Source: Pontederia crassipes (taxonomy: Eukaryota > Streptophyta > Magnoliopsida > Commelinales > Pontederiaceae). Taken from it: a stretch of DNA of 64,000 nucleotides. The notes beneath the pieces are model-generated. The model ran no database searches. It saw nothing but the letters and a program-made list of their open reading frames with translations, and was not told the origin of the DNA. The stretch covers positions 30,207,052 to 30,271,051 of the forward strand of contig CM060183.1 of NCBI GenBank assembly GCA_030549335.1, given 5' to 3'. Each line of letters opens with the position of its first letter. Position 1 is the first letter of the stretch. The translations under genes and the position numbers were made by a program. Shown here one piece after another: positions 16,593 to 63,709 of this stretch.

Positions 16593-17518
<926 letters not shown>

Positions 17519-18325
17519 GGAAATCCTTGATGAGAAATTGTATTAGAACACACTTATCGAAAATGATTATAAGTACATCTTGCAAACCTACATTTTCTGA
17601 AACATAAAAATAATAGATATAACAGATATCGACAGTTCTATTTTTTTAGACACAGCTAATACGTTTGATATCCGTTTTACATGAAAAAAAAAACTATGCA
17701 TAATTTGTGAAACTGTATATATAATATTATCTTCCATCACATCATGTATACGCTGTATATACGCCATGTCAACATGCCAAAAATGAGAATTTGTAACAAA
17801 ATCGAAAAGTTTGAACCGTTATATATATACGACAATTATGATTTTATCTCCATGTACTTTTTTTTCGCTCGTAGTAAAGTTTTCTCGTGACAACGGCATC
17901 CTTTGTCATTTGATATTTCTTCCTTGTGCACTTATAATAAGATTTTATGATGTTAAATTTTTATGTTCTTCTATTTTGTCTCAATTTGTTTTATTTTGAA
18001 CACGTGAAAATTAAATATGAAATAAGTAGCAACGAACATGGGATTTTTTTTTAACATAGTTAGATATTTGAGGCAGTTCACATGCAATCACAGCCAATCA
18101 TTCATAAACCATTTCTTCACGAAGCAGTAATTGATCATTCATACTCAAATCTGTACGTAGATTTTTTGGCATGCAGCGCAGCTGAACCCAACTATATCTA
18201 TAAGAGTAGCACTACGCAACGCATGCATGAAACCATTTTATTAATACGCCAACTCACATGTTCAAAAACCACGACGGAATACGACATTCGAAAGCTCTTA
18301 ATCCCATTGCCGCCAATTAGTCACG

Positions 18326-18556
18326 CTAGTTGTGGTGTTGTGGGTCTGGTCCTCCGGGGACTTCTCTCATGAGTCGTTCACTCCTCGGAGGAGCCCTATC
18401 TCTGATCCGAAGATCGAACCCACGTCTTGCTAAATCGTCCTCGTTCTTGCAACCAGCTGCAAGATCGATCGCCCTGCAGGCCTCGCAGGTACTGATGAAG
18501 ACGACGTCCGTGCAAAGGAGCAAGAAGAGCAGCACGAATGTCTTGAACATTGCCAT
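18326..18556 (-). CDS. CLE: CLE signalling peptide precursor, copy 1
   Basis: A single exon encodes 76 residues from the ATG at 18556; an in-frame GTG three codons upstream is not a plausible start. Residues 1-28 are a hydrophobic secretion signal (MAMFKTFVLLFLLL...) ending near an AC-rich cleavage region. Residues 29-63 are a variable spacer. Residues 64-75 are the CLE dodecapeptide REVPGGPDPQHH, with one Asn before the stop. CLE propeptides are secreted and cut to 12-13 residue ligands, usually with hydroxylated or arabinosylated Pro, that bind leucine-rich-repeat receptor kinases in meristem and vascular signalling. The Pro and Gly positions typical of CLV3-class ligands are intact. This copy has the most diverged spacer of the four. 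A TATA box lies 65-73 bases upstream, implying a short 5' UTR. Confidence 0.93.
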   Translation of the reverse strand: MAMFKTFVLLFLLLCTDVVFISTCEACRAIDLAAGCKNEDDLARRGFDLRIRDRAPPRSERLMREVPGGPDPQHHN

Positions 18557-18620
18557 GCTGATCACAGGACCACCTTACTGTAACTTGTCTGACTGCAATG
18601 AGCAGCAGAGTTGGTGCCTC

Positions 18621-18629
18621 TATTTATAG
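18621..18629 (-). promoter_or_regulatory. TATA box of CLE copy 1
   Basis: The minus-strand sequence is CTATAAATA, 65 bases upstream of the ATG. It is kept at the same spacing in all four units. Confidence 0.75.
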
Positions 18630-18635
18630 GCCGCT

Positions 18636-18851
18636 TCATGTCGACAAGTAAGAGTTGGCGATAGTTGATGAATATACTACTTGCAGGTGGTGGTGCTTTT
18701 CATGAGTGAGTGCATGCATGTATGCATGGTGATGGGTCGATCGAGCAACTACGAACTCCTCCAACAGCCGCTTCCCCAGTTCGACAAATCCGACGCAAAA
18801 GCCGTTGATTTCCACTATTTCTGCCATTAGCGTCCTTTGTGCGCCTTCCAT
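18636..18851 (-). other. Conserved small open frame upstream of CLE copy 1
   Basis: It has 71 codons from an ATG, opening MEGAQRTLMAEIVEINGF and continuing VGFVELGKRLLEEF. I do not recognise the family and see no signal peptide. The first 40 codons stay open in all four units, but the tails differ. A TATTTATAAA-type box lies about 60 bases upstream, at 18906-18920. It may be a small gene, a gene fragment copied with the CLE gene, or chance; high copy identity alone keeps the frame open. Confidence 0.3.
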
Positions 18852-19505
18852 AATCGTCAGGCCTTCTCTCTGTGTGTGGGCTACGTACCCCAAGGCACCT
18901 CGTGTAGTTTATAAATATAACCAAAAGAGGACATGATCAATCATATATACATAATTAATGCATAGTGACCACGCGCGTCGACATGCAGATTAATTATGTT
19001 GCACAAAACTGCTTCCTTATTAATGTACTTTACACTCGTCGGTACCACTAACTTTTCTTAGATGCATCCATAAAAAGAAATGGCCATTTCAGTTTCCGTA
19101 TTAATCACAAAAGTTGTGACTATTCTTTCTTGGTAGTCTTTGTACTCTATTTTAATTCTTCTAGGTAATAATGCTTTGAATATGAAGCAAGTTGGTCTCT
19201 CTACATAGTCAGACGCTTCAATAGAATTTTTCTAGAGATATTCTGTATGTGATTCGGATTTGATTTATTTTTTTATCACGAGATAAGTGTTTTATTTTTA
19301 AAAAACTTATTTAGAGTCTCAGTTCGTATGTAATTTCTATTATCTATCAAAATGAGTATCTATATAAATTTCCTAGAGTCTAAATAGGGACTCATCATTA
19401 TAATTATTATTTTTTCATAACAAAGAATCGCCGTCGTTTTTTCTCTTCGCATTCTTCTGTGTTTCGTACGATCCCTCTCTCCTTCCTTTAGTAACACTTC
19501 TGAAT

Positions 19506-19853
19506 TTGTTACACTCGTGTTCTCGTTGCATGCAGACTTATCGAGAGCGCTCGAGTACGAGAACGCAAACGACCAGCAGCATCTCTCTTCTACAAAAACG
19601 TTGCACTAGCCGGATCCTTGATAGGCGCTCTGCAGAGCTTGACTTTGAGCCATTAAACTCCGGCCGGCCACCCGGGCTTTTTGGCACGGTGAGGGATATA
19701 TCATACGGAACGAAGAGCTACATGGCGGCCGGCCACCGCCCCCAGGGACGCGCCTTCCATCGGCGCCTACTTTTGGAGCTACTACTCGGGGCGCAGGAAC
19801 GGCAAAGAGGGCATGAGAGCCACTGCCTTCCTCTGGAGCTTGCACTGTTTTAG
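19506..19853 (+). other. GC-rich conserved segment between CLE units, copy 1
   Basis: An abrupt GC-rich block with an open plus-strand frame of about 110 codons (ends LELALF) and other shorter open frames on both strands. One frame reads IGAYFWSYYSGRRNGKEG, another SLFYKNVALAGSLIGAL. No known domain is recognised. A consensus-like acceptor (TTGCATGCAG) sits at its left edge. It recurs almost unchanged at 22081 and 24330. It could be a captured exon fragment or an unannotated gene piece. Confidence 0.35.
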
Positions 19854-20897
19854 AAATATGCTGCTATAATATTAATTTGCTATCAACCAAATTATATAAA
19901 TTCTTTAACTAATAAAAGACATTTTAGTAAAATATGTGTATTATTTAAATTTTTTTTTATAAGTATACATGATCATCTGAATTGCTAAACAAATTATTTC
20001 TGCTTAATAAACAAGGCAATACATATTATTTATGATTTAATAATTGGCCATTAAGATAGTCTAATTGATTATAATTTGTCTTGGGTATTAACTCTCCCTT
20101 CACTTAAAATTGTCCTGCGTATTCGAATTTCCTATCAAATATCAAGTAAATCAATATTAATTATATATATAACATATATATCGGTCTTACTTACATAACA
20201 TATTTTCCAAAATTATTTTTTCATAATTGTCTATAATTATGGAAATTTCCTTGATGATGTCTAAGTAATTGTGTTAGAACACACTTTTCGAAAATGCTTA
20301 TAAGTACATTTTGCTACCTACATTTTCTCAAAACTTAAAAATAATAGATACACCATATATTGATAGTTATAATTTTTTTTAGACATAACGAAGGGCATCC
20401 TAAGTTAAATATAACTAATTAAATCGTCATGATATGCTCGTTACATGAAAAAAAAATCATGCATACATATTTGTTAAAGCATCATATATAATATTATCTT
20501 CCATCACATCATGTATATACACAGAGCATATACGTGAAAGTTAAACATGGAGTGGTGAATTGTGTGTGACGTTAATTACGACAATGAGGGATTGTTACGC
20601 AATATGAACATGGGAAAAAAGTTCCTTTTTTTTTTTAACGTAGTTACATATATGAGGCAGTTCACATGCAATCAAAGCCAATCATTCAATAGACCATTGC
20701 TTCCTAAAGCAGTAATTGATCATTCAATACTCAAATCTCTAGATAATTTTCGGCATGCAGCACAGCTGAGCCCAGCTACGTAAGGGCAGTACTACGCATG
20801 CATGAAGCCATTTTATTAATACACCAACTCACATGTTCAAAAACCACGACAGAGTATGACATTCGATAACTCTTCCACTGCCGCCAACTTAATGACG

Positions 20898-21128
20898 CTA
20901 GTTGTGGTGTTGTGGGTCTGGTCCTCCAGGGACCTCTCTCATGGGTAGTTCACCCTTCAGAGCCCTACCTCTGATCCAAAGATCGAAACCACGTCGTGCT
21001 ACATTGTCCTCGTGTTTGCAACCTTCAGCTCCAGGATTGATCGCCCTGCAGGCCTCGCAGGTACTGATGAAGACGACGTCCGTGCCCAGGAGCAAGAAGA
21101 GCAGCACGAATGTCTTGAACATTGCCAT
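20898..21128 (-). CDS. CLE: CLE signalling peptide precursor, copy 2
   Basis: It has 76 codons from the ATG at 21128. The signal region differs from copy 1 at one position (Gly for Cys). The spacer is diverged (INPGAEGC, DNVARRGFDLW, KGELPM), and the dodecapeptide REVPGGPDPQHH plus Asn is identical. It differs from copies 3 and 4 by a single residue (AEG versus AAG). Promoter and small upstream frame are conserved. All CLE features, including a secretion signal and a C-terminal ligand, are intact, so it is likely functional. Confidence 0.93.
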   Translation of the reverse strand: MAMFKTFVLLFLLLGTDVVFISTCEACRAINPGAEGCKHEDNVARRGFDLWIRGRALKGELPMREVPGGPDPQHHN

Positions 21129-21189
21129 GCTGATCACAGGACCTTACTGTATCTTGTCTGACTGCAATGAGCAGCAGAGTTGGTGCCTC

Positions 21190-21198
21190 TATTTATAG
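21190..21198 (-). promoter_or_regulatory. TATA box of CLE copy 2
   Basis: CTATAAATA on the minus strand, at the same position relative to the ATG as in copy 1. Confidence 0.75.
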
Positions 21199-21267
21199 GC
21201 CGCTTCATGTCGACAAGTAAGAGTTGGCGATAGTGATGAATATACTACTTGCAGGTGGTGTTGGTTT

Positions 21268-21426
21268 TCATGAGTCACGAGTGAGTGCATGCATGTATGC
21301 ATGGTGATGGGTCGATCGAGCAACTACGAGCTCCTCCATCAGCTGCTTCCCCAGTTCGACAAATCCGACGCAAAAGCCGTTGATTTCCACTATTTCTGCC
21401 ATTAGCGTCCTTTGTGCGCCTTCCAT
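21268..21426 (-). other. Conserved small open frame upstream of CLE copy 2
   Basis: It has 52 codons and opens MEGAQRTLMAEIVEINGF like copy 1. It ends earlier (THHHAYMHALTRDS) because a short insertion changes the tail. The family is unknown. Confidence 0.3.
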
Positions 21427-22080
21427 AATCGTCAGGCCTTCTCTCTGTGTGTGGGCTACGTACCCCAAGGCACCTCGTGTAGTTTATAAATATAACCAAA
21501 AGAGGACATGATCAATCATATATAGATAATTAATGCATAGTGACCACGCGCGTCGACATGCAGATTAATTATGTTGCACAAAACTGCTTCCTTATTAATG
21601 TACTTTACACTCGTCGGTACCACTAACTTTTCTTAGATGCATCCATAAAAAGAAATGACCATTTCAGTTTCCGTATTAATCACAAAAGTTGTGACTATTC
21701 TTTCTTGCTGGTCTTTGTACTCTATTTTGATTCTTCTAGGTAATAATGCCTTGAATTTAAAGTCAGTTGGTCCATCTACATAGTCAGACGTTTCAATAAA
21801 ATCTTTTTAAGAATATTCTGTATGTGATTCGAATTTAATTTATTTTTTTATCACGAGATATATGTCTTATTTTTAAGAAATTTATTTAGAGTCACAGTCC
21901 ATATATAATTTTTATCATCTATAAAAAAAAGTACATATATAAACTTTTTAGGGTCTAGATAGAAATACATCCTTGTAATCATTATTTTTTCATAACAAAA
22001 AACCGTCGTCATTTTTTCTTTTCGCGTTCTTCTGTGTTTCGTGCGATTCCTTTCTCCTTCTTTTCGTAACACTTCTGTAT

Positions 22081-22428
22081 TTGTTACACTCGTGTTCTCG
22101 TTGCATGCAGACTTATCGAGAGCGCTCGAGTACGAGAACGCAAACGACCAGCAGCATCCCTCTTCTACAAAAACGTTGCACTAGCCGGATCCTTGATAGG
22201 CGCTCTGCAGAGCTTGACTTTGAGCCATTAAACTCCGGCCAGCCACCCGGGCTTTTTGGCACGGTGAGGGATATATCATACGGAACGAACAGCTACATGG
22301 CGGCCGGCCACCGCCCCCAGGGACGCGCCTTCCATCGGCGCCTACTTTTGGAGCTACTACTCGGGGCGCAGGAACGGCAAAGAGGGCATGAGAGCCACTG
22401 CCTTCCTCTGGAGCTTGCACTGTTTTAG
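22081..22428 (+). other. GC-rich conserved segment between CLE units, copy 2
   Basis: Almost identical to 19506-19853, with the same open frame of about 110 codons and the same acceptor-like left edge. Function unknown. Confidence 0.35.
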
Positions 22429-23471
22429 AAATATGCTGCTATAATATTAATTTGCTATCAACCAAATTATATAAATTCTTTAACTAATAAAAGACATTTT
22501 AGTAAAATATGTGTATTATTTAAATTTTTTTATAAGTATACATGATCATCTGAATTGCTAAACAAATTATTTCTGCTTAATAAACAAGGCAATACATATT
22601 ATTTATGATTTAATAATTGGCCATTAAGATAGTCTAATTGATTATAATTTGTCTTGGGTATTAACTCTCCCTTCACTTGAAGTTGTCCTGGGTATTCGAA
22701 TTTTCTATCAAATATCAAGTAAATCAATATTAATTATATATATAACATATATATCGGTCTTACTTACATAACATATTTTTCAAAATTATTTTTTTCATAA
22801 TTGTCTATAATTATGGAAATTTCCTTGATGATGGCTAAGTAATTGTGTTAGAACACACTTTTCGAAAATGCTTATAAGTACATTTTGCTACCTACATTTT
22901 CTCAAAACTTAAAAATAATAGATACACCATATATTGATAGTTATAATTTTTTTTAGACATAACTAAGGGCATCCTAAGTTAAATATAACTAATTAAATCG
23001 TCATGATATGCGCGTTACATGAAAAAAAAATCATGCATAAATATTTGTTAAAGCATCATATATAATATTATCTTCCATCACATCATGTATATACACAGAG
23101 CATATACGTGAAAATTAAACATGGAGTGGTGAATTATGTGTGACGTTAATTACGACAATGAGGGATTGTTACGCAATATGAACATGGGAAAAAAGTTCCT
23201 TTTTTTTTTTAACGTAGTTACATATATGAGGCAGTTCACATGCAATCAAAGCCAATAATTCAATAGACCATTGCTTCCCAAAGCAGTAATTGATCATTCA
23301 ATACTCAAATCTCTAGATAATTTTCGGCATGCAGCGCAGCTGAGCCCAGCTACGTAAGGGCAGTACTACGCATGCATGAAGCCAGTTTATTAATACACCA
23401 ACTCACATGTTCAAAAACCACGACAGAGTATGACATTCGGTAACTCTTCCACTGCCGCCAACTTAATGACG

Positions 23472-23702
23472 CTAGTTGTGGTGTTGTGGGTCTGGTCCTC
23501 CAGGGACCTCTCTCATGGGTAGTTCACCCTTCAGAGCCCTACCTCTGATCCAAAGATCGAAACCACGTCGTGCTACATTGTCCTCGTGTTTGCAACCTGC
23601 AGCTCCAGGATTGATCGCCCTGCAGGCCTCGCAGGTACTGATGAAGACGACGTCCGTGCCCAGGAGCAAGAAGAGCAGCACGAATGTCTTGAACATTGCC
23701 AT
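23472..23702 (-). CDS. CLE: CLE signalling peptide precursor, copy 3
   Basis: It has 76 codons from the ATG at 23702, and the predicted protein is identical to copy 4. It has a hydrophobic signal region, spacer INPGAAGCKHEDN, and C-terminal REVPGGPDPQHH plus Asn. The surrounding unit is nearly identical to unit 2, which points to a recent duplication or gene conversion. The next unit was separated from this one by the copia insertion. Confidence 0.93.
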   Translation of the reverse strand: MAMFKTFVLLFLLLGTDVVFISTCEACRAINPGAAGCKHEDNVARRGFDLWIRGRALKGELPMREVPGGPDPQHHN

Positions 23703-23763
23703 GCTGATCACAGGACCTTACTGTATCTTGTCTGACTGCAATGAGCAGCAGAGTTGGTGCCTC

Positions 23764-23772
23764 TATTTATAG
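23764..23772 (-). promoter_or_regulatory. TATA box of CLE copy 3
   Basis: CTATAAATA on the minus strand, conserved in sequence and position. Confidence 0.75.
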
Positions 23773-23841
23773 GCCGCTTCATGTCGACAAGTAAGAGTTG
23801 GCGATAGTGATGAATATACTACTTGCAGGTGGTGGTGGTTT

Positions 23842-24000
23842 TCATGAGTCACGAGTGAGTGCATGCATGTATGCATGGTGATGGGTCGATCGAGCAACTA
23901 CGAGCTCCTCCATCAGCTGCTTCCCCAGTTCGACAAATCCGACGCAAAAGCCGTTGATTTCCACTATTTCTGCCATTAGCGTCCTTTGTGCGCCTTCCAT
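23842..24000 (-). other. Conserved small open frame upstream of CLE copy 3
   Basis: It encodes the same 52 residues as the copy 2 frame. The family is unknown. Confidence 0.3.
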
Positions 24001-24329
24001 AATCGTCAGGCCTTCTCTCTGTGTGTGGGCTACGTACCCCAAGGCACCTCGTGTAGTTTATAAATATAACCAAAAGAGGACATGATCAATCATATATAGA
24101 TAATTAATGCATAGTGACCACGCGCGTCGACATGCAGATTAATTATGTTGCACAAAACTGCTTCCTTATTAATGTACCTTACACTCGTCGGTACCACTAA
24201 CTTTTGTTAGATGCATCCATAAAAAGAAATGGCCATTTCTGTTTCCTTATTAATCACAAAAGTTGTGACTATTCTTTCTTCATAGTCTTTGTACTCTATT
24301 TTGATTCTTCTGTATTTGTTACAGTCGTG

Positions 24330-24660
24330 TTCTAGTTGCATGCAGACTTATCGAGAGCGCTCGAGTACAACAACGCAAACGTCCAGCAGCATCCCTCCTC
24401 TACAAAAACGTTGCACTAGCCGGATCCTTCATAGGCGCTCTGCAGAGCTTGACTTTGAGCCATTAAACTCCGGCCGGCCACCCGGGCTTTTTGGCACGGT
24501 GAGGGATATATCATACGGAACGAACAGCTACATGGCGGCCGGCCACCGCCCCCAGGGACGCGCCTTCCATCGGCGCCTACTTTTGGAGCTACTACTCGGG
24601 GCGCAGGAACGGCAAAGAGGGCATGAGAGCCACTGCCTTCCTCTGGATTTTAGAAATATG
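24330..24660 (+). other. GC-rich conserved segment, copy 3 (3' end altered)
   Basis: It matches the blocks at 19506 and 22081 but lacks the GAGCTTGCACTG stretch at its end, so the frame runs on differently (LDFRNMLLGL). It lies just upstream of the copia insertion. Confidence 0.35.
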
Positions 24661-24708
24661 CTGCTAGGCCTGCTTTTTTTTCATATTTTATTCAGATTAA
24701 TAACAAAC

Positions 24709-25018
24709 TCTTGGAGTTAGTTATGGAGAATCAAGATAGATATTTCGATTATCTTGAGTTGTTACTCAAGGCACATATCTGATATGGGTTATGCACCATA
24801 TATTGTGGGGATCTGGGTAATATTTATAATTACGAACTGAAAAAATTGAGACATTTGAATATAGTGAAACTCTATGACGACCATAGACGTAAGAGACAAC
24901 CACGTAAAATTTGTCTTTCTCTGTGTGTGTTTTTTTATTATTTTTCAACTATATGTTCTTCGATTTCTTCTAGACATCGGTATCAACAATAAGTTGATAT
25001 CGAGGATATTCCGCAACA
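24709..25018 (+). repeat. 5' LTR of the copia element (internally deleted)
   Basis: It ends CCGCAACA like the 3' LTR but is 310 bp against 480 bp. The missing part lies in the U3 region just after GGAGTTAGTTA. The first bases are TC rather than TG, a decayed terminus. Confidence 0.85.
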
Positions 25019-25020
25019 AT

Positions 25021-25032
25021 TGGTATCAGAGC
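25021..25032 (+). other. tRNA-Met primer-binding site
   Basis: TGGTATCAGAGC follows the LTR by two bases. This is the usual initiator-Met tRNA complement of plant copia elements. Confidence 0.9.
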
Positions 25033-27655
25033 TTCGGTGAAGGAATTCGTGGGCAGTGTGAGCGATGGCGACAAACGACGAGAATGTGAAGATCGAGAAG
25101 TTCGATGATAGATTTCGACTTTTGGAAGATGCAAATTGAAGACTATCTGTATCAGAAGAAATTACACGGGCCTCTCTTTGGGAAAAGTCGGAGGCGATGA
25201 GCGATGCGTACTGGGCGCTCCTCGACCAGCAGGCGCTCGGTGTTATCTGTTGGCGTGGAACGCAGCCTTTAACATCGTGAATGAGAAGACCACGACTGAT
25301 TTGATGAAGTCGTTATCAAACATGTACGAGAAGCCATCTGCATCAAATAAGGTGTATTTGATGAGAAAGTTATTCAACATGAAGATGTCTGAGGGAGCTT
25401 TGATCGCAGATCACATCAACGAATTCAACATTATCATCATCACATAATTGAATTCGATGAGTATCACTTTTGATGATGAACTGAGGGCTTTGATCTTGTT
25501 GTCCTCTTTGCTAGAAAGTTGGGGTGCAACTGTGACGATGGTCAGCAGTTCTTCCGGTTCAACAAAGTTGAAACTCGATGATATTCGAGATTTGATTCTA
25601 AGCGAAGACGTTCGCAGGAAAGAATCAGGAGAAGTCTCGAGCTCAGCGTTGAGTGCAGAGGGAAGGAGAAGAACGCACCAACGAGGACAAAATCAAGGAA
25701 GATCAAATGCAAGGCGATGAAGTTAGTCAAGAACTGGTGAATTCGCATGCTGGAATTGCGGGAAGAAATGTCACCTAAAGAAGAATTACAAGAAGAAAAC
25801 CAATGAGGAGTCGGCGAATGTTGCAGAAGAAGTCTCAGATGCATTGGTTCTAAGTGTTGCCAGTCCGACAGAATCCTGGATTCTGAATTCTGAAGCTTCG
25901 TAACATTTCACATCACAAATGGAGTGTATGAAAGATTACACTACCGGTAAGTTTGACATGATTTATCTGGCTGATGATAAAGCCTTGAATGTTATGGGTA
26001 AGGGAAATATGAAGATTGTCACTGATAATGGGACAACTTGGAAGCTAAAGGATGCTCGACATATACCGGAGTTGAAGAGAAATCTGATCTCAGTTGGACA
26101 CCTTGACTCAAAGGATTACAGTATTTGTAGGTAATACCTGGAAGGTCATCAAAGGAACTATGGTGATCGCACGGGGCAGCAAGCTGGGTACTTTGTACAA
26201 GTCGTCGAACGAAAGAATTATCGCAGCAGCTGATTCGAATGATATGTTTGAAGTCTGGCATTGCAGACTTGGACATATGAATGAAAAAAGGATGAAGGTT
26301 CTGCACAAGATGGGTCGACTATCAGATCTGAAGTCAGTCGATGGTGGACTTTGTGAAGGCTGTATATTGAGAAAGCAGAAGAAAGTCACATTCAACAAAG
26401 TGTCAAGGATGCCGAAAAGTAGCAAGTTAGAGCTTGTGCACACGAATGTGTGAGGGCCATCTCTAGTTCCATCCCTCGGCGGGTCATTATATTATGTGAC
26501 ATTTATCGACGATTATTCCAGGAAGATATGGGTTTATTTTTTGAAAAATAAATATGATGTGTTCTCTACTTTCAAGAAATGGAAGACACATGTAGAAAAT
26601 GAAACAGACGTCAAGATCATGTGTTTGCGGTCTGACAATGGCCGTGAGTATGTGAACCATGAGTTCAAGGGGTTTTGCGGAAAAAATGACATTAGGATGG
26701 AGATGATAGTTCCAAGGACACCACATCAGAACTGAGTTGTTGAACGGATGAATATGACGCTGAAAGAGCGTGCCAGGAACATGGCGATCCATGCAGGTCT
26801 ACTAAAGTCATTTTGGACAGATGCAGTGAACATAGTGGCATACCTAATCAACCGCGGGCCATCTGTACCATTGGAGAAACAGAGGAGATCAGGAGTGGTA
26901 AGGAGGTAGATTTTTCTCATCTGAGAATTTTCGGTAGCCTATCATATGTGCATATTGATTCTGCATGTAGAGACAAGCTAGATGCTAAGTCTCAGAAGTG
27001 TTTTTTATTGGTTATGATTCTGAAGAGTTCGAATATTGTTTCTGGGATAATGAGAATAGGAAAATTATCCGGAAAAAAAACGTAGTGTTCCATGAAAAGA
27101 CCATGTATAAAGACAAATATGTTGCAGAATTTGGTAATGCAGGAGAAAAAAATAAGGCTCAAGTGGAACTTGTGGGCATTTCAAATGAAGATGTGGCCAA
27201 GTCCGAAAAGATTGTTCAGTAGGAGCCTGAGATGATACAGGCTGGGTCGAGTACTTCATTCCCTATCAGGAGATCTACTCGGAAAATAAGACCATCGGTG
27301 ATGTACTCTCCTTTTCAGAATTTCATGTTGCTAACTAATGCTGGTAAATCAAAGTGTTTTAGAAAATTCTTGACGATTGATGATTCAGTTAAGTGGGAGT
27401 TAGGAAGGAAGAATGAAATGATTCATTGTACAAGAATAAAACTTGGGTGCTGGCAAAATTGCCTAATGATGAAAAGACATTACACAAGAAGTGGTTGTAT
27501 AAGATCAAGGAAGAGTCATGTGGCTATCACAATAAATCGAGATTCGATGCAACTTCGGGTTCCCTCCAAAGTTAGTTGCAGGGAGGAGCCGTCCAGAGTT
27601 TGAGCACACGCAGGTGCAACTCAATTTCAAGAAAATCAGTCTCCAAATAGGAGAT

Positions 27656-28135
27656 TGTTGGAGTTAATTAGGTGGAGACTAATTCTGAGCCTAACTAATT
27701 TGTTGTTAGATATAATAAAAAGAATATGAGAGATTGTAACTTCCTTGTAACCATAATAAAGTAGTTATGATAACCATAATCTGAAAAGATTGAGTGGTTA
27801 TCATAACTACCTTATTTCTTAGATATGGAGTTATGAAGAATTAGGATAGATATTCGGTTATCCTGAGTTGTTACCCAAGGCACATATCTGGTAACGGTTA
27901 TACACCATATATTGTGGGGATCTTGGTAATGTTTGTAATCCCGAACTGAAAAAGTTGACACATCTGAATAGAGTGAAACTCTATGACTGCCGTAAATATA
28001 GGAGGCAATCTCCGAACCACGTAAAATCTGTCTTTTTCTGTGTGTGATTTTTTATTATTCTTCCACTATCTATCTTTCGATTTTTTCCAGACATCGGTAT
28101 CAACATTAAATTGATATCGAGAATGTTCCGCAACA
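27656..28135 (+). repeat. 3' LTR of the copia element
   Basis: It starts TGTTGGAG and ends CCGCAACA. It aligns with the 5' LTR from the TATGGAGTTATGAAGAAT region to its end. A purine-rich stretch (AAATAGGAGA) lies just before it. Confidence 0.88.
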
Positions 28136-28874
28136 CAAATGATTTAAAAGAATATTGGTTTGTTTTAATATAAAATATCTTTAATATTAGAATTTAACTT
28201 ATTATTATTATTATTTTTAGATAGTCATCGATATTTTAAAAACGGTATCTTACTATTATATATGTTATATATATAATATTTTTTTATCAAAATATTTTTC
28301 ATCGCGCTCCGCGAGAGAGTTCCCTAATTTTAATTTTGTGAGGAATTTAAAATGTCTATCCACGCTTATTGTTTGTAATGAAATAACAATTCATATATCG
28401 CACATTTCAATTTATTTATTTTTATAATAAACTAATATTTTATTCAAAATATTTGTAATGAAATAACAACGCTTATTGTTATCATTATTTGTATTCAAAA
28501 TAAGCTAAATCTTTACAATATTAATTTGCTATCAACCAAATTATATAAATTCTTTAACTAATAGAAGACATTTTAGTAAAATATGTGTATTATTTAAAAA
28601 TCTTTTTATAAATATACATGATCTCATCTGAAATGCTAAACAAATTATTTCTGCTTAATAAGCAAAGTAATACATATTATTGATGATTTAATAATTAACC
28701 ATTAAGATAGACTAATGGATTATAATTTGTCTTGGGTATTAACGTTGTCTTGAGTATTCGAATTTTCTATCAAATATCAAGTAAATCAATATTAATTATA
28801 TATATAACGTATATATCGGTCTTACTTACATAACATATTTTTCCTAATTAATTTTTTTCATAATTGTCTATAAT
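28136..28874. other. Array spacer beyond the copia insertion
   Basis: AT-rich. From about 28515 it matches the spacers at 19870 and 22440. The part 28136-28500 is found only here and, in part, at 17265-17400. No gene. Confidence 0.5.
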
Positions 28875-29509
28875 TATGGAAATCCTTGATGATGTCTAAG
28901 TAATTGTATTAGAACACACTTTTCGAAAATGCTTATAAGTACATTTTGCTACCTACATTTCCCCAAAACTTAAAAATAATAGATACACCATATGTTGATA
29001 GTTATAAAGGGCGTCCGAAGTTAAATATAACTAATTAAATCGTCATGATATGCGCGTACATGAAAAAAAAATCATGCATAAATATTTGTTAAAGCATCAT
29101 ATATAATATTATCTTCCATCACATCATGTATATACACAGAGCATATACGTGAAAGTTAAACATGGAGTGGTGAATTATGTGTGACGTTAATTACGACAAT
29201 GAGGGATTGTTACGCAATATGAACATGGGAAAAAAGTTCCTTTTTTTTAACGTAGTTACATATATGAGGCAGTTCACATGCAATCAAAGCCAATCATTCA
29301 ATAGACCATTGCTTCCCAAAGCAGTAATTGATCATTCAATACTCAAATCTCTAGATAATTTTCGGCATGCAGCGCAGCTGAGCCCAGCTACGTAAGGGCA
29401 GTACTACGCATGCATGAAGCCAGTTTATTAATACACCAACTCACATGTTCAAAAACCACGACAGAGTATGACATTCGATAACTCTTCCACTGCCGCCAAC
29501 TTAATGACG

Positions 29510-29740
29510 CTAGTTGTGGTGTTGTGGGTCTGGTCCTCCAGGGACCTCTCTCATGGGTAGTTCACCCTTCAGAGCCCTACCTCTGATCCAAAGATCGAAA
29601 CCACGTCGTGCTACATTGTCCTCGTGTTTGCAACCTGCAGCTCCAGGGTTGATCGCCCTGCAGGCCTCGCAGGTACTGATGAAGACGACGTCCGTGCCCA
29701 GGAGCAAGAAGAGCAGCACGAATGTCTTGAACATTGCCAT
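29510..29740 (-). CDS. CLE: CLE signalling peptide precursor, copy 4
   Basis: It has 76 codons from the ATG at 29740, and the predicted protein is the same as copy 3. The signal region, spacer and C-terminal REVPGGPDPQHH plus Asn are intact. The unit's right flank is more diverged than those of copies 2 and 3 and lacks the GC-rich block, so this is the edge of the array. The TATA box is at the conserved position. Confidence 0.93.
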   Translation of the reverse strand: MAMFKTFVLLFLLLGTDVVFISTCEACRAINPGAAGCKHEDNVARRGFDLWIRGRALKGELPMREVPGGPDPQHHN

Positions 29741-29745
29741 GCTGA

Positions 29746-30033
29746 TCACAGGACCTTACTGTATCTTGTCTGACTGCAATGAGCAGCAGAGTTGGTGCCT
29801 CTATTTATAGGCCGCTTCATGTCGACAAGTAAGAGTGATGAATACAGAATACTACTTGCAGGTGGTGCATGGTGGTTTTCATGAGTGCGTGCATGCATGT
29901 ATGTATGAAATGAATGGGTCGATCGAGCAACTACGAACTCCTCCATTAGCTGCTTCCCCAGTTCGACAAATCCGACGCAAAAGCCGTTAATTTCCACCAT
30001 TTCTGCCATTAGCGTCCTTTGTGCGCCTTCCAT
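29746..30033 (-). other. Conserved small open frame upstream of CLE copy 4
   Basis: It opens MEGAQRTLMAEMVEINGF. An indel lets the frame run 95 codons, past the CLE TATA box to just before the CLE start. The conserved part is only the first 40 codons, so the long tail is probably non-functional. Confidence 0.28.
29802..29810 (-). promoter_or_regulatory. TATA box of CLE copy 4
   Basis: CTATAAATA on the minus strand. Confidence 0.75.
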
Positions 30034-30270
30034 AATCTTCAGGTCTTCTCTGTGTGTGTGGGACACCCCCATGGAACCTCGTGTAGTTTATAAATATAAC
30101 CAAAAGAGAACATGATATCAATCATATATAGATAACTAATGCATAGTGATCACGTCGGCATGCAGATTAATTATGTTGCACAAACTGTTTCCTTCTTAAT
30201 GTATATTCCACTTGTCGGCACCACTAACTTTTGTTAGATGCATCCATACAAGAGAAGGCCATTTCACTTT

Positions 30271-31286
30271 CTTCTTTCCCTTTCTTTCGTGTTATTTTTT
30301 AGGGCTCACGGTGTCAGAAGGCCAATCTAGCAGCCTAGCTGGATGGCTGCACACTCTTTTGTCTCAGCTAGCTGAAATAGTAGTGACAGATCAGAACGCA
30401 AATCAGAATGCAACATCAACACCTGCGAAATCGATTTCCACGTAGTAACATGAAAATAAAATGATCATCTTTTTGTTGCTTGAACTGCCAATATACATAT
30501 ATATATAAGTCTGAATAATCTTAGCATATATGAACTGAAGCCAGTGACTAGATCTCCACACAAGATTTAGCGTACCCTACAGAGCACGTCGCTATACAAA
30601 ATTGATAGATTAAGGAGCACAAAATGGGTCCTTCTACCTGGTTCCCATCTTTTTATCTCCACTAGGTCCTGTCGTCAACTAGAAAGCCCCAACACTTGAA
30701 CCAATTTATTTTAACTAATCGTTGCGTTAACCACACCATCATCGCTCTGCACTACTACTACTATTACTACTAGTAGTAATACTACCTGCTTTGCGGCGCC
30801 GCATATGAAAAGAAGCACCACCCGCATGCAAACTAAATGAAGCTGTGGGGGTATAAGATGCAGTTGATGCGGTGTAGACGTGGTCTGGTACACCATTAGT
30901 ATTATTAAACACTTATTGTGCTCGATATTTTTGTCGCACAAAATCCTGGTTAATTGCATAAACATATTGATCTGAATGGGAGTGTGTGTGTGCCTGTCAT
31001 TCTTATCATCGATGAACGAAGTTGCTTGAGTTCAATAGGAGAAACCCTACTAAGTAAAGGAGATGATGCATGTACTCATTTGGTCGATCATAACAAGTTG
31101 GCCATGGTGCATTAGATCCATTGCACAGCAAGCATTCAGCACAGTAACAAATGTTAATGTAGCCCCAGTTGGGAATAGTTCATTGGTTTCGAACCATCAC
31201 TCCAACACTCTTCCAGGAAATTTCAACTTTAGTCACCAAGTAACTTAAAAACTCTCTGCATTAAAAAGGGAACAGACAGGAATTGA
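30271..31286. other. Spacer without a recognised gene
   Basis: Short open frames only. A small TACTACTAC/GTAGTAGT cluster lies near 30752-30785. Confidence 0.4.
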
Positions 31287-33350
31287 TGTAGGAGTGATTC
31301 CTAATTTGTTTACTTTTATATTATTTATATTCTAGTGAGGAGTTTTATTTTATCTTTAACTTTTGTTACAAGAGTCCCACATATATATGTTAGGTGGAAT
31401 TAATGATTTATAAACCTATTTAAAGGAACAACTACGTGAAGCTTTAAGTATTAGATTTGATCATTCAACAGAATTTTGTTTGGATCTTTCTAAACTTAGA
31501 ATATCAGAGAAGGGGATCTCTAGAGATTTCTTTCAAGTGTTGGTGGATTTCAAAGTGATCTCTTCGTCAACTATCATTCCCTTGAACTTTTTTTTGCATC
31601 GTCATCTCTTCGTCTTTTTCTTTGATTTCTGCTTGCATTCTCTGTCTGCCGTGCCAAAAATCTGATTCATGTGAGTTATCAATTCAATATTAATTTATTA
31701 TTAGTTGCTCCATCCACTACATCAATTGGTATCAAAAATGGAAAAACAAACAAATATGGATAAAAGTGTCATTGCTTTAGAAAGTTTTCTAAGGCAACAT
31801 GGTGTGGAACGAGCTCATCCTCGACCTGAAAAATGAACACAATTGAATCAAGAGTGTCTAGTCGCAAATTTTGGTAGTGGACAATAATGGCGAAGATACT
31901 TGACGAGATTATTGTTTATCTAGATGAACAAGAAGAACAACATTGGTCGAATCCATTTTCCTTGGAGCAAATATCGAAAACTACAGATAGGGATGAGGGT
32001 ATGGGTCAACATTGGTTGAATCTGTATGTTCTCCTTGAATCAAATATCGAGACTACAGATGAGAAACTTCATTATTAAAGAAGTTAATAAAAAATTTGGC
32101 TTGATCACGACCAGTGCGAAGATGAACTCATTGCAACAATTGGAAGATACAATTGTGAAAGCAAAAATTTTTATTTGGAATTTGATTGAATTACTTCAAA
32201 GTGATTCCGTATTCTAGAACGTTCTGATTGACATCTAAGAAACTATATCTATTTATCTGGATCGTAGGGTTCCCTCATTGCGTGTTAGTAATTCTCAAAA
32301 TCATCACATTAATAAAAGTTTATTCATACTGTTTTCATTTAGGTTCTAATAATCTTGATCATCGGTGAATCTTGGGAGAGAAACATCTATTTAGGACAGG
32401 TTTTCAAGTCAAGCAAAGGGTTGTCATACTCAAAGTATTCAAGACCGGGATCTTATCTAAGATCGGAAGGGGTCCGTAAGATCGAAGATCCTACTAATAT
32501 ATTAAAAAAATATCCTACTAATATATTAAAAATATAAATTATGTAAAATAATATTTTTTTTAAAAAAATTATGATGATTTAAATTATAAATAATGTTAAC
32601 TTGAGTATTATCATATTAAGGCTTCCTACAAACGCATATATATATTATTTATATAATAGTAATTTAATGTAGATTGGCAAAAAAATGACAATAATATGAT
32701 GAATATGAAATAACATTATATAATAAATTTTAATATACATTTATAATAGGGTTATTTTATGAAAAAAAACTGAACATTTTAATTGTAACCAATGACTTTT
32801 TTTCTTAATTTTATTTCTTAAAAAATCATGTTGCATTTGGTGAAAATTTTAAAAAATAAAAAAATAAAAAATTGGATTAATAGGATCGATAAGATCGTAA
32901 TATCTTATCGATCTTACGATTCTACCAATGTTACATAAATAATCTCAAAATTGCTAAGGGCATCGCATTAGAAAGCATTTTTGGAGCATTAGCAAGGACG
33001 GTGGAAATTGGATCTCTAGGACTCCCTACTACTTGGAACGGACTTGCCGCTAAGAGAAAGATATGCCTCGAAATCGCAGACCCTAGATAGGATTAAGATT
33101 ATGATTTTGATAATCTTGGTCATACCCTATTCTCAAATTAAGAACTATCATTCATGTGGCCAAGGCTTCCCATTAGATTCTCTATTTCGCCGCATCGCGA
33201 AAGATTCTATTAGAAGCGTTGAGCATCATCATCAGATTATAAAACTACTTGAGTTCAAAGATCGATCTCTTTTCTAGGAGTTTGATGTGGAATTCCAAGT
33301 GTATTTACTTTTCTATCGTTTCTGAAGAGTTTTACTTTACATTGGACTTC
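31287..33350 (+). mobile_element. Decayed LTR retrotransposon remnant
   Basis: A 435-bp LTR (31287-31721) runs from TGTAGGAGTG to CCACTACA and contains a TATTTAAAGG box. A TTGGTATCA primer-site-like sequence follows at 31726. The adjoining frame (from 31739, MEKQTNMDKSVIAL) is gag-like but soon broken. Near 33289 the start of an LTR seems to recur (TGTGGAATTCC, TTTACTTTTCTAT, GAGTTTTACTTTA), suggesting a truncated 3' LTR. No protease, integrase or RT is visible. The right border is uncertain. Confidence 0.55.
32884..32913. repeat. Perfect 12-bp inverted repeat
   Basis: GATCGATAAGAT, a 6-base spacer, then ATCTTATCGATC. It could form a small hairpin. It lies in AT-rich non-coding DNA. Confidence 0.85.
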
Positions 33351-34107
33351 ATTAAAATAGTTCTTGTTTAAATGAAATTAGTTATCCACAAAAAATAATA
33401 AATTTGACTTGATAACATTTTATTTCATATTCGCAATTTTTTTTTCTAAACCCAGAGTTTGTGAGAAGACGGGCTTTGCATTTTCTTGCACCGGCCCTGT
33501 CGTTGAATTTATGTCAATCATCAATTCTTAGTTCATAGTTCTTTAACAAAATTCAGAGATGAAATGCCATCCATGTTTCCTGCCACTTAATTTTTACCTG
33601 ATTCTTTAGAAAGTATTTTGGAAATATTGCTATTTTCCTAGTTGTCATTTCAAACTTGATTTAAACATGCATGCATAAAGTAATATAATAGTAAATTAAT
33701 CGAATATACTCCATACTTATTAACTATATATATAATAATAATTGCTAATTAATTATTACTTGGCGTGCGTTTGGAGGTAGCTCATCATGATAAGCTCTAT
33801 ATATATCAAGTAATCTTATCCCCATGCATGCCCTCCCCAACCAGGGAAGAAAGACGGTGGTCCTCCAATACTAATAAGCCGCCGTCCGTCAGCTGTCCAC
33901 AACATCGATCTACATATTCCGACCCACTCTCTCTCTCTCTCTCTCTCCACTGAGTCGCCCACTTCACCTAACAGCCCATCAACGAAATGCATGCAATTAG
34001 CTCTTATCAATTAAAGGAATTGGAAACTAAGTCGAAGACTAATTAATTTGACCACACGTTGCTCATATGCCGTGTAATCATTCGCATGTTAAGAAAACAA
34101 ACTACAT

Positions 34108-34205
<98 letters not shown>

Positions 34206-35785
34206 TCACGTTATAAGAACTTATCAACCGACCAAGATTGCCAATTCGCCATTGAGGCAAGACAAGCTGATTAATTACAATCAATCGCCATCTTATCCAC
34301 GGCACAAAGTGACATTATCACTTGTCGTAAGAAACCAAGTCTAACTTGGCATTCCATTTAATTATTCAAGAATCACTCATTAAGACTAATGGAAGTGTCA
34401 GATTACCTTGTAGGATAAGCTTCAAGGTTTGCTTTTCCGAAAGAAAAAAAAATGCATGCCCGACGAAAAATCGAAATCTCACCAATAATTTTTCTCATTA
34501 TAAACCGGCAATTGAAAAGATTATGTATTATATGTGTCTGCATAATTATAACTTATTATAACAGCTCATCATCGTTTAAGTAAAAATCTTCTCGAACTTT
34601 TGTAGATGTAGAATTTTTTCGCTAAAAATTTCATCCGTCGTATTCAAATATATTATCCGAGATGACAAGACTTCAATACGTGATTAATGCCCATAACTCT
34701 TTAACATGGTGTGGGTTGTACTATGAATCCCAGATGGCAATAGAAAGAAAAGGAATCCCCATCTCACGTGGCATTATACTTTTCATCCTTGGTTAATCTT
34801 AAAAACCATCGATATGGTGGTCGCAATGCGGGAACACTTATCCGTTAACATGTGTTTATGTTCAACTCAAGTTACATCGGCTCATTTATTTAACAGAATC
34901 TTGAGTCACCAATTTAATTGAGAAATTGTTGTTTCTCTCTTATCCGAACCAAAAAAACTAGACACGTGCAAATGGGTACTAAGCACTACAGATGGGTTCA
35001 TATCTAAAAAAAAAGATATGTTTATGTGCAACGTACTAGACTTAGATTTTAGAAATGTCCGAATGTTATTTTTCAATCTTTTTGAACGGGCCACTGAACC
35101 AATTTTGGGGGGAGGGGGATCAAGCTCTCCAAAAAAAAAAAAGTAGTAAAACATTGAATGAATGGTTTTCTTTAGTAGATTCGTTCGTACACGCAACTTT
35201 TCCCTGTCCTTTCCTTTCTCTTTCAAAATATATATGCATGATGTGCATAGGGGGCACTTTTGGTCTGACACCTTGTCATCCTAAAATAACCGGCAAAAAA
35301 GGATATGATACATGTGTCAAAGCCGCTTAATTATTCTACTTTGGAGTTCTAAGCTTGACCCAAAAAAAGAAGGGAAAAAAAAAGGTAACATGGCCATCTG
35401 GGGCAATTGAGTGTAGTTGTTATAAGTACTGCCCCGTGTGACTACGAGTTCACCAAGTATTTCAATTTTCAAGTTCTTCCACGTATCCAATTAGTTAATC
35501 ATGTCAAAGCAACTCAGTTGCAAGTAAAATGGACATTTTGATAAGCTCTCTGCACTTTAGCCATGTTAACAGCACATCAAAACTTTATTTATTGCTCAAA
35601 TGGAGGTTGGAAGCATCCTGAACCATAATGTTCTCCATCAGAATAGTGTTGCGAAAGGAAAAGAGCACTCAACGTCAAGACTTACAATTGATTGAAGTGT
35701 CGAAAGAAAGAAAGAAAGCACAATTAAACACTTGACAGTCAAGTTGTGCTACTACCAAGGGCAAAAGCTTCCTGCAGTTCATGAT
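33351..35785. other. Intergenic DNA
   Basis: No gene is recognised. It contains CT microsatellites at 33927-33946 and 34109-34200. The final stretch is the downstream flank of the minus-strand CLE gene. Confidence 0.4.
34109..34200 (+). repeat. (CT)46 microsatellite
   Basis: A pure CT dinucleotide run. The open frames through it are artefacts. Confidence 0.97.
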
Positions 35786-36031
35786 CTATCTGGTAACCTT
35801 AAAATGGTGCTGTGGGTCTGGCCCGCTGGGGCTGACACGCTGAGAGTCCAAAGCTCTGTCCCCAACCTGCCGCCACACAGCTGCCGCGGCCGGGCGTTCC
35901 GCCGTGCTGCCCGCCTTCGAGCCTCCACGGCCAACTGCCGCTAAAGGGCGGCACTCGCAGTTCCTTGTGCAGGGAGATAGCACCAGCATGAGACAGACAA
36001 GAAGCATGGCTTTCAGATGCAACCTCTCCAT
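35786..36031 (-). CDS. CLE: CLE signalling peptide precursor, RVSP type
   Basis: A single exon of 81 residues from the ATG at 36031. Residues 1-25 form a hydrophobic signal (MERLHLKAMLLVCLMLVLSP). A GC-rich variable region rich in Ala and Arg follows. Residues 65-76 are the CLE motif RVSPSGPDPQHH, then a five-residue tail FKVTR. The RxSPxGPDPxHH pattern is that of the Arabidopsis CLE1-CLE7 group rather than the xVPxG form of the array copies, and the spacer has no visible similarity to them. This is a separate subfamily member and not a fifth unit of the duplication. A TATA box lies about 95 bases upstream. A C-terminal extension after the motif occurs in some CLEs and is normally trimmed. 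Confidence 0.9.
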   Translation of the reverse strand: MERLHLKAMLLVCLMLVLSPCTRNCECRPLAAVGRGGSKAGSTAERPAAAAVWRQVGDRALDSQRVSPSGPDPQHHFKVTR

Positions 36032-48760: not shown

Positions 48761-51633
<2,873 letters not shown>

Positions 51634-62263: not shown

Positions 62264-62687
62264 CTTACACAGACCACAGGTGTCACTGGCTTTTCTCTCC
62301 ACCACCAATCGATATATATATGGAGGTCTAGTGATATATACTTGCCCTTCAGATTCAGATATTACAGCTACATTTGTTGTTGCTGTCATAGACCCACAAG
62401 TGAACTGGTCATATTGGCAATTGAGTAGGAGAATTTGATGTATGGGGCGAGCTCTTAATTAGCGGGGACAAGTCTAGTAGATCAATTAGCGAAGAGGAGA
62501 TGCAGACAGCAAGCAGAACCTACGACTAGATCTTCAGAGAAGAGCAAGCAGGAGGGGATTGAAGAAAGCTGAGGATCTAAAAGAATCGATTTTTATGATA
62601 CAAGTTACCGTATCTAACTTACCATTTGTAGCACACGAGAGGTTCTTGTTTCCTACCCTCCCTTTCCTCTTTGTCTGTCTCTGAAGG

Positions 62688-62750
62688 ATGCGCGGCTGTC
62701 CATGGAGGACAACAGCCGTGGCTACAACCAGCGGAAATATCACCAGCTGA
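62688..62750 (+). other. Upstream open frame overlapping the TCP start
   Basis: An ATG 14 bases before the TCP start opens a 20-codon frame (MRGCPWRTT...) that ends inside the TCP coding region. A ribosome starting here would miss the TCP start. Whether it lies in the mRNA depends on the true transcription start. Confidence 0.5.
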
Positions 62751-63709
62751 GGGGTGCCGGGGAGCTGATAGAGGTGCACGGAGGCCACATTGTGCGGTCC
62801 ACAGGTCGGAAGGACCGCCATAGCAAGGTGTTCACCGCCAAAGGCCCGAGGGACCGGCGAGTCCGCCTCTCTGCGCACACCGCCATCCAGTTCTACGACG
62901 TCCAAGACCGCCTTGGCTATGATCGCCCGAGCAAGGCCGTCGACTGGCTCATCCAGAACGCCAAAGCCTCCATAGACCAGCTCGGCGAGCCCTCCCCGTG
63001 TAACGCTAACGCCCCTTCGGATCAGCAGAACGCCCGTGAACCATCGATGCTCGAAGTCAAAGCAGATCTACCAGTAAGCTACAGCATCAGCGTCGCCTCC
63101 TTCCTCCCTCCTCTGGATGGCGAGAACTCCATGAAGTCCTTCCCTGTCGCCGCTGTCACGGGGTCGTCCTACGAGAACTGCACGCCGGATCTCCTGCCGA
63201 GCGCCAGCAGCCAAGCGCAGGACCTCAGTTTGTCCCTCCAATCCTTTCACGAACCCATCTTTCAGCAAGCTCACCACCAACACAGTCATCCCGATTCCAC
63301 GATGCACACCTTCTTCTCGGGTACCGCAAGTTTAGCTCACGGCGCGACTCCTGTCAGCTGGCCAGCGCACGGCGAGAGAATGCTCACGTTTAACGCGGCT
63401 GACGCGCTTTGTGGCGGCGGAGGCGGCGGAGAATTTGCCTACAACGTCGCGTTCTCGCAACATAACCAAAGCCAGTTCACTCAGAGGGAACCCCTTCAGT
63501 CCAGTAACTTGTCCCCGGTTCGCGCCTGGATGGACCCGTCGGCTATCCAACAGTCTTCCTTTTCAGCCGCCGCCGCCGCCGCCACCGGCATGTTTCTGCC
63601 CGCTGGCTACGGCGGCTTCCCGGGGTTCGACATACCGGTGCGAGTCCATGGTGGTGAAGCAGAGCAGGGCGGCATTGACAGAAAGCCGCACCCTGCTCCT
63701 CACCAGTGA
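62702..63709 (+). CDS. CIN-class TCP transcription factor (TCP4-like)
   Basis: A single exon of 335 residues. Residues 25-95 are the TCP domain: a basic region [20 protein letters not shown], helix [21 protein letters not shown], loop, and helix [17 protein letters not shown]. The short basic region without the class I insertion and the PSKAVDWL helix mark class II, CIN type. The rest is Ser/Gln-rich with a Gly run (GGGGGG) and a poly-Ala tract near 294-300. A microRNA319 pairing site encoding REPLQSS lies at about residues 261-268. CIN-TCPs bind GGNCCC-type DNA sites and limit leaf cell division and promote maturation; miR319 cleaves their mRNAs. The length fits the TCP3/4/10/24 group. The start chosen is the first ATG in frame with the TCP domain. 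Confidence 0.95.
63483..63504 (+). promoter_or_regulatory. miR319 target site
   Basis: It contains GAGGGAACCCCTTCAGTCC. The 3' half CCCCTTCAGTCCA is the conserved pairing core of miR319 targets in CIN-TCP genes, and it is in the expected place, downstream of the TCP domain in the coding region. Confidence 0.88.

What the first reader, a model, noticed from the sequence alone, without database searches (positions are those of the whole stretch)
17519..36031. Cluster of five CLE peptide genes on one strand, four in a tandem array
Four single-exon CLE genes lie in a 2.57-kb tandem repeat, with a fifth of another subclass 6 kb further on. All read the same way and have TATA boxes at matching spacing. 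CLE genes are usually dispersed, so a same-strand array making one ligand from several promoters suggests dosage or expression-domain differences. The array is seen directly; the biological role is inference.
Basis: partly seen in the sequence, partly recalled or inferred. Interest (0 to 1): 0.85.

Follow-up and report, generated by a model that had tools for sequence, protein, structure and literature searches.

The report
Homogenised tandem array of CLE genes
A plant (probably monocot) chromosome segment carries four near-copies of a gene for one small CLE signalling peptide plus a fifth, different CLE gene beside them; the cluster is real in this sequence, but such clusters are a known kind, and its most telling feature is that the copies look as if recombination has kept them alike.

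Summary
The cluster is real in the sequence: five intact single-exon CLE genes on the minus strand. Four (18326-29740) end in identical REVPGGPDPQHHN; the fifth (35786-36031) carries RVSPSGPDPQHH. Corrections: two of three intervals are 2.57 kb; the third is 6.04 kb, with a ~335-bp loss and a decayed Copia element; gene 5's TATA box is 100 bp, not 69-72 bp, from its ATG. The premise that CLE genes are usually dispersed fails: Arabidopsis CLE4/5/6/7 lie within 16.5 kb and bean PvCLE15a-d form a four-gene array beside PvCLE14. REVPGGPDPQHH occurs in 32 of 72 database hits. The copies are mosaics: coding and 3' flank alike in copies 2-4, upstream sequence alike in copies 1-3, core promoter alike in all four. 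This fits unequal crossing-over, probably with gene conversion, between two older copies, leaving two upstream types (three plus one). A TCP10-like gene lies about 26.6 kb from gene 5; Arabidopsis locus numbers place TCP10 beside CLE4-7, so an old TCP-CLE neighbourhood is possible: a lead, not proof. Expression and true copy number were not testable.

The parts
18326..18556 (-). CLE copy 1 (76 aa, ends MREVPGGPDPQHHN); diverged pro-region, upstream region of type A
   Evidence: ORF and motif; 21-22 of 225 aligned coding bases differ from copies 2-4
20898..21128 (-). CLE copy 2 (76 aa), hybrid unit: coding/3' flank of type B, upstream of type A
23472..23702 (-). CLE copy 3 (76 aa), hybrid unit like copy 2; protein identical to copy 4
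29510..29740 (-). CLE copy 4 (76 aa), coding/3' flank of type B, own upstream region (type B)
35786..36031 (-). Fifth CLE gene (81 aa, ...RVSPSGPDPQHHFKVTR), 34-35% identical to the array proteins
17502..20222 (.). Repeat unit 1 (3' flank of copy 1 to the intergenic region before unit 2)
   Evidence: self-BLAST and alignment
20223..22796 (.). Repeat unit 2 (2574 bp)
22797..24666 (.). Repeat unit 3, cut short: lacks the ~335-bp stretch present at 19162-19497 / 21737-22072
28514..30271 (.). Unit-like sequence beyond the insertion: end of the intergenic region (28514-28859) and repeat unit 4
29076..29792 (.). About 0.7 kb of unit 4 that is 99-100% identical to unit 3 per 120-column block (3' flank, coding sequence, 5'UTR); identity falls on both sides: probable gene-conversion tract
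24667..28513 (+). Sequence found only between copies 3 and 4, containing a decayed Copia-type retroelement (gag, Pol_BBD, GAG-pre-integrase and SH3-like fragments in separate short frames)
24719..25018 (+). LTR-like end of the Copia element (83-84% identical to 27829-28135; exact ends not fixed, no target-site duplication recognised by eye)
27829..28135 (+). Second LTR-like end
18620..18628 (-). TATA box of copy 1 (TATAAATAG, starting 72 bp before the ATG); counterparts start 69 bp before the ATG in copies 2-4
62618..63709 (+). TCP transcription factor gene (stop-to-stop frame; TCP10/TCP4 class), about 26.6 kb from gene 5
   Evidence: PF03634 E 1.1e-30; best solved-structure match TCP10, E 1.7e-40; 2849 homologues at E up to 0.001, 120 listed, the top ten from Musa, Ensete, Cocos and Elaeis

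Best explanation
This is a local cluster of CLE peptide-hormone genes (A-type by its motif, a recalled criterion) in a flowering plant, probably a monocot. An older pair of REVPGGPDPQHHN genes (A at 18 kb, B at 29.5 kb) diverged and was then expanded and partly re-homogenised by unequal crossing-over, I think with gene conversion, giving A, two hybrids (B coding and 3' flank under A upstream sequence) and B. An old Copia insertion lies between copies 3 and 4. How it would work: each gene makes a secreted pre-propeptide from which the same 12-13-residue ligand is cut, so copies 1-3 add dose under nearly the same promoter, while copy 4 and gene 5 can be expressed differently. Shown: genes, order, identities, mosaic pattern. 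Inferred: the recombination history, secretion, processing, expression, and perception by CLV1/BAM-class receptors (recalled).
For: Five motif-bearing intact ORFs, against 0 hits in 300 shuffled windows. Of 106 variable sites among 1017 ungapped columns shared by all four units, 55 set unit 1 apart, 40 set unit 4 apart and 11 show other patterns; in the 3' flank, motif, pro-region and signal-peptide zones 50 set unit 1 apart and 2 unit 4; in the two zones above the core promoter 38 set unit 4 apart and 4 unit 1; the 90-bp 5'UTR/TATA zone has 1 variable site. Unit 4 against the continuous stretch 22440-24245 (end of unit 2 plus unit 3): 11 differences of 971 bases centrally, 18 of 341 on the Copia side (Fisher p 3.7e-5), 40 of 432 upstream (p 1.2e-12); I set these boundaries after seeing the profile, so the p-values are descriptive. 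Selection alone does not explain the central stretch: its non-coding 3' flank is 94-100% alike among units 2-4 but about 52-92% between unit 1 and the rest, per 100 columns, a few with under 60 aligned bases. The mature peptide is unchanged in all four, with 2 synonymous differences in its codons, while 13 (copies 3, 4) or 14 (copy 2) replacements and two one-residue gaps separate copy 1 from the others elsewhere. 72 of 72 profile hits (240 candidates scored) carry the motif, 32 of them REVPGGPDPQHH exactly.
Against: No reads, expression data or second genome could be examined; the genome search did not complete. The 3 of 5 CLE proteins given to Pfam matched no family, the single-protein search found no candidate, and the profile search E-values are weak (best 9.7e-4); its candidates are chosen by shared words, so 72 of 72 with the motif is not independent evidence. 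The order of crossing-over, conversion and Copia insertion is not resolved: the 336-bp patch between units 1 and 2 (83.6% identical, flanks 98-99%) and the LTR-like ends (84%) look older than the 98-99% stretches, but the patch is rich in transitions (44 ts, 11 tv), as methylated DNA would be, so part of its divergence may be rate, not age.
Confidence: 0.82

Rival explanations
1. A variant within the best explanation: unequal crossing-over only, without gene conversion. An A-B pair recombined once or twice near the 5' end of the gene, making hybrids 2 and 3, and differences since then are ordinary mutation. (Odds here overlap with those of the best explanation.)
For: The switch from the 'unit 1 apart' to the 'unit 4 apart' pattern lies between 21087 (5' part of the coding sequence; one more such site at 21152) and 21225, about 97 bp above the ATG, for both units 2 and 3, and these two are 98.45% alike over 1870 bases.
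Against: It predicts even divergence of units 3 and 4 up to the insertion point, but identity falls from 99-100% to 93-96% toward the Copia side, and it leaves the 83.6% patch between units 1 and 2 and the 84% LTR pair unexplained. Raised mutation next to a methylated element could rescue it.
Confidence: 0.35
2. Assembly artefact: allelic copies of one or two genes strung together.
For: Units 2 and 3 differ by only about 1.5%, within the range of allelic differences in outcrossing plants (recalled); no reads were seen.
Against: The four units have different outer flanks, a ~335-bp loss and a 3.85-kb insertion; all four reading frames are intact.
Confidence: 0.06
3. Some copies are silent or on the way to being pseudogenes; only gene 5 and one array copy matter. 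Compatible with the best explanation of how the array arose.
For: Copies 2-4 are so alike that intact frames say little; the inserted sequence with Copia begins 0.97 kb above copy 3.
Against: Copy 1 differs at 9-10% of coding bases yet is open, with dN/dS about 0.39-0.53 and an unchanged mature peptide (short sequence, so a weak test). TATA box and 5'UTR are present in all four.
Confidence: 0.25

Closest known systems
Arabidopsis CLE4/CLE5/CLE6/CLE7 cluster, chromosome 2 (At2g31081-At2g31085)
   Same: Four CLE genes within 16.5 kb; CLE5 and CLE6 have identical predicted peptides; CLE5, CLE6 and CLE7 ascribed to local duplication (PMC6508849, passages); numbered next to TCP10, At2g31070
   Different: CLE5 and CLE6 promoters only 49.6% similar over 1.7 kb (same passages), whereas array copies 1-3 here share nearly the same upstream region; the RVSP start that I recall for the CLE5/6 peptide occurs here only in gene 5, the array has REVP
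Common bean PvCLE15a-d with PvCLE14, chromosome 7
   Same: Four tandem CLE genes plus a different CLE gene adjacent; the four arose after the split from soybean (PMC4526924, passages)
   Different: Two of its four (PvCLE15a, d) have an unusual residue at position 1 (same passages), here all four peptides are identical; its full sequences were not seen
Grass REVPGGPDPQHH CLE genes (for example rice OsI_03778, wheat CFC21_048099)
   Same: Identical 12-residue peptide and similar precursor length, 78-89 aa
   Different: Pro-regions differ; their genomic arrangement was not examined
Heterodera cyst-nematode CLE with motif RVSPSGPDPQHH
   Same: Same 12-residue motif as gene 5 (PMC8618561, one table passage)
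   Different: A nematode peptide in a review table; gene 5 sits among plant genes with its own precursor. Mimicry or convergence, no shared locus implied

Membership tests
CLE (CLV3/ESR-related) peptide genes | C-terminal 12-13-residue CLE motif | tested here: met
   5 of 5 ORFs; 0 pattern hits in 300 shuffled windows
CLE (CLV3/ESR-related) peptide genes | Short precursor with hydrophobic N-terminal signal peptide | tested here: met
   76-81 aa, hydrophobic stretch from residue 8 in 5 of 5; hydropathy only, no signal-peptide predictor was run
CLE (CLV3/ESR-related) peptide genes | Sequence relatives that are CLE precursors | tested here: met
   72 of 72 profile hits carry the motif, P0143 named CLAVATA3/ESR-like; caveat of word-based candidate choice, and no Pfam match for the 3 of 5 proteins tested
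CLE (CLV3/ESR-related) peptide genes | Cleavage, proline hydroxylation and arabinosylation, receptor binding | not testable with these tools
   needs biochemistry
Tandem CLE array | Several copies, same strand, homologous flanks | tested here: met
Counterpart of the Arabidopsis TCP10-CLE4/5/6/7 neighbourhood | A-type CLE genes next to a TCP10/TCP4-class gene | tested here: inconclusive
   TCP gene present about 26.6 kb away; no plant genome could be searched for intermediates, and the ORFs between (a Nudix-like one at 51 kb) were not matched to Arabidopsis positions

The most novel reading that the evidence does not exclude
The cluster is one lineage's version of a TCP-CLE neighbourhood older than the monocot-eudicot split, and within it the CLE copies evolve in concert: gene conversion keeps ligand and core promoter the same while distal upstream sequence drifts, so that dose and expression change without changing the signal.
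Probability: 0.3. Interest if true: 0.55.

Novelty: new member of a known kind. Interest (0 to 1): 0.3.

Why it matters
CLE genes are short and often missed by annotation, and copies with the same ligand hide each other in mutants. A clear mosaic array shows how such redundancy can be maintained, and the unit-specific sites allow reads to be assigned to groups of copies. If the TCP neighbour is ancient, it offers a way to trace orthologous A-type CLE genes, whose proteins are too short and variable for good trees.

Tried and rejected
Protein search with one array copy: no candidate; repeated as a four-sequence profile (copies 1, 2, 4 and gene 5), 72 hits. Pfam on 3 of 5 CLE ORFs: no family. 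Rfam at gathering thresholds on the window: nothing. tRNA: none. Whole-genome search for further copies: tool unreachable five times, so copy number elsewhere in the genome is unknown. Literature search by grass TCP and CLE locus-number prefixes (chosen from names and from recall) to test linkage in grasses: 0 papers. Search for the exact array peptide in papers: none. Search for papers holding at least two of TCP10, CLE4, CLE7: 29, of which the 10 listed all lack TCP10; 19 were not listed, so I saw no earlier report of the linkage but cannot say there is none. Passages of PMC2254619, PMC10281966 and PMC8213210 added no closer case. I considered and rejected that the 107-126-aa plus-strand ORF repeated in units 1-3 (19530, 22105, 24340) is a gene: no Pfam match for the one copy tested; I treat it as part of a GC-rich repeated module. 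I considered selection on coding sequence as the sole reason for the 99% stretch and rejected it because non-coding 3' flank shares it.

Full report
What is there. The window holds five intact, intronless CLE pre-propeptide ORFs, all on the minus strand: copies 1-4 at 18326-18556, 20898-21128, 23472-23702 and 29510-29740, and gene 5 at 35786-36031. Copies 1-4 end in MREVPGGPDPQHHN; gene 5 ends RVSPSGPDPQHHFKVTR. The motif pattern has 5 hits in the window and 0 in 300 shuffled windows. The proteins of copies 3 and 4 are identical, copy 2 differs from them by one residue, copy 1 by about a fifth of its residues; gene 5 is 34-35% identical to the three array proteins aligned with it.

Corrections to the observation. 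Start-to-start distances are 2572, 2574 and 6038 bp within the array, then 6276 bp to gene 5. The long third interval has lost a ~335-bp stretch and gained 24667-28513, which contains a Copia-type element in broken frames: of six pieces scanned, four match gag, Pol_BBD, GAG-pre-integrase or SH3-like models above the curated cut-off, one matches gag below it and one matches nothing. Its LTR-like ends are 83-84% identical; the exact ends of the element are not settled. TATA-to-ATG distance is 69-72 bp in copies 1-4 but 100 bp in gene 5.

Mosaic structure. In the stretch shared by all four units (1017 ungapped columns, 106 variable), 55 sites set unit 1 apart, 40 set unit 4 apart and 11 show other patterns. 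The two classes occupy different places: unit 1 is the odd one in the 3' flank and coding sequence (50 against 2), unit 4 in the region above the core promoter (38 against 4), and the 90 bp holding 5'UTR and TATA box vary at one site. So copies 2 and 3 look like hybrids, type B below and type A above. Comparing unit 4 with the continuous stretch 22440-24245 (end of unit 2 plus unit 3), identity is 99-100% per 120-column block over 29076-29792 and falls on both sides; differences are 11 of 971 in the centre, 18 of 341 on the Copia side and 40 of 432 upstream, with boundaries chosen after seeing the earlier profile. I read this as unequal crossing-over plus at least one conversion tract; crossing-over alone is the main rival.

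Older marks inside the array. A 336-bp patch (19162-19497 v 21737-22072) is 83.6% identical between units 1 and 2 although its flanks are 98-99%; unit 3 lacks it. A tract copied from a unit without the patch would stop there, which fits conversion. Against this, the patch has 44 transitions to 11 transversions, as in methylated DNA; but transversions are also raised over the flanks (11 of 336 v 8 of 1258, p 4.6e-4). The LTR-like ends (84%) likewise suggest an insertion older than the 98-99% stretches. Age and rate cannot be fully separated here.

Selection. Between copy 1 and copies 2-4 the mature peptide codons differ only by 2 synonymous changes, against 13-14 replacements elsewhere; dN is 0.08-0.09 and dS 0.16-0.20 over the whole ORF. 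This suggests mild constraint, concentrated on the ligand, on few sites.

Organism and neighbours. The TCP protein at 62618-63709 has 2849 homologues at E up to 0.001, of which 120 were listed; the top ten are from Musa, Ensete, Cocos and Elaeis at 47-55% identity over 41-93% of the query. The plant is therefore probably a monocot with no close relative in the list; the species is unknown. The best solved-structure match is TCP10 (an Arabidopsis protein, recalled). Arabidopsis TCP10 is At2g31070 and TCP2 At4g18390 (PMC5469495, passage); CLE4-7 are At2g31081-85 and CLE2 At4g18510 (PMC4416448, passage). Since such numbers follow chromosome order (recalled), TCP10 lies beside CLE4-7 and TCP2 about 12 genes from CLE2. 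A TCP gene near A-type CLE genes here too suggests an old neighbourhood, but it is one case, with no intermediate species examined.

Relatives of the array. The profile search scored 240 candidates and returned 72 at E up to 10, all with the motif: 32 REVPGGPDPQHH, 19 RSVPGGPDPQHH, 13 RTVPGGPDPQHH, 8 others. Of 40 with an organism name by my count, 37 are grasses (my reading of the names). The array ligand is therefore not new, although the exact string was in no paper of the library.

Comparison with the literature. Tandem CLE clusters are on record (passages only). The bean array of four plus one is the closest in layout; the Arabidopsis cluster is the closest in peptide type (recalled) and neighbour.

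Verdict. Real in the sequence, ordinary in kind, with an instructive recombination pattern and an untested lead on TCP-CLE linkage.

Noticed in passing
62618-63709: TCP10/TCP4-class transcription factor gene near the end of the window, about 26.6 kb from the fifth CLE gene; Arabidopsis locus numbers show a like arrangement for TCP10 and CLE4-7, and more loosely TCP2 and CLE2.
   Followed up: partly
19497-19866, 22072-22441, 24307-24666: GC-rich 360-370-bp module with a 107-126-aa plus-strand ORF, 97-99% alike in units 1-3; no Pfam match for the copy tested, origin unknown.
   Followed up: partly
19162-19497 and 21737-22072: 336-bp patch, 16% diverged with strong transition bias between otherwise 98-99% identical units, missing from unit 3; may be a small methylated element or a stretch spared by conversion.
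   Followed up: partly
11339-12454: ORF with a DUF1421 (UBA-like) domain, minus strand.
   Followed up: no
51082-51681: Nudix-hydrolase-like ORF, minus strand (match to Nudix hydrolase 11 in the solved-structure set, E 1.8e-5); no Pfam match by this exon alone.
   Followed up: no
35804-35839: The fifth gene's motif RVSPSGPDPQHH equals one listed for Heterodera cyst-nematode CLE peptides in a review table (PMC8618561).
   Followed up: partly
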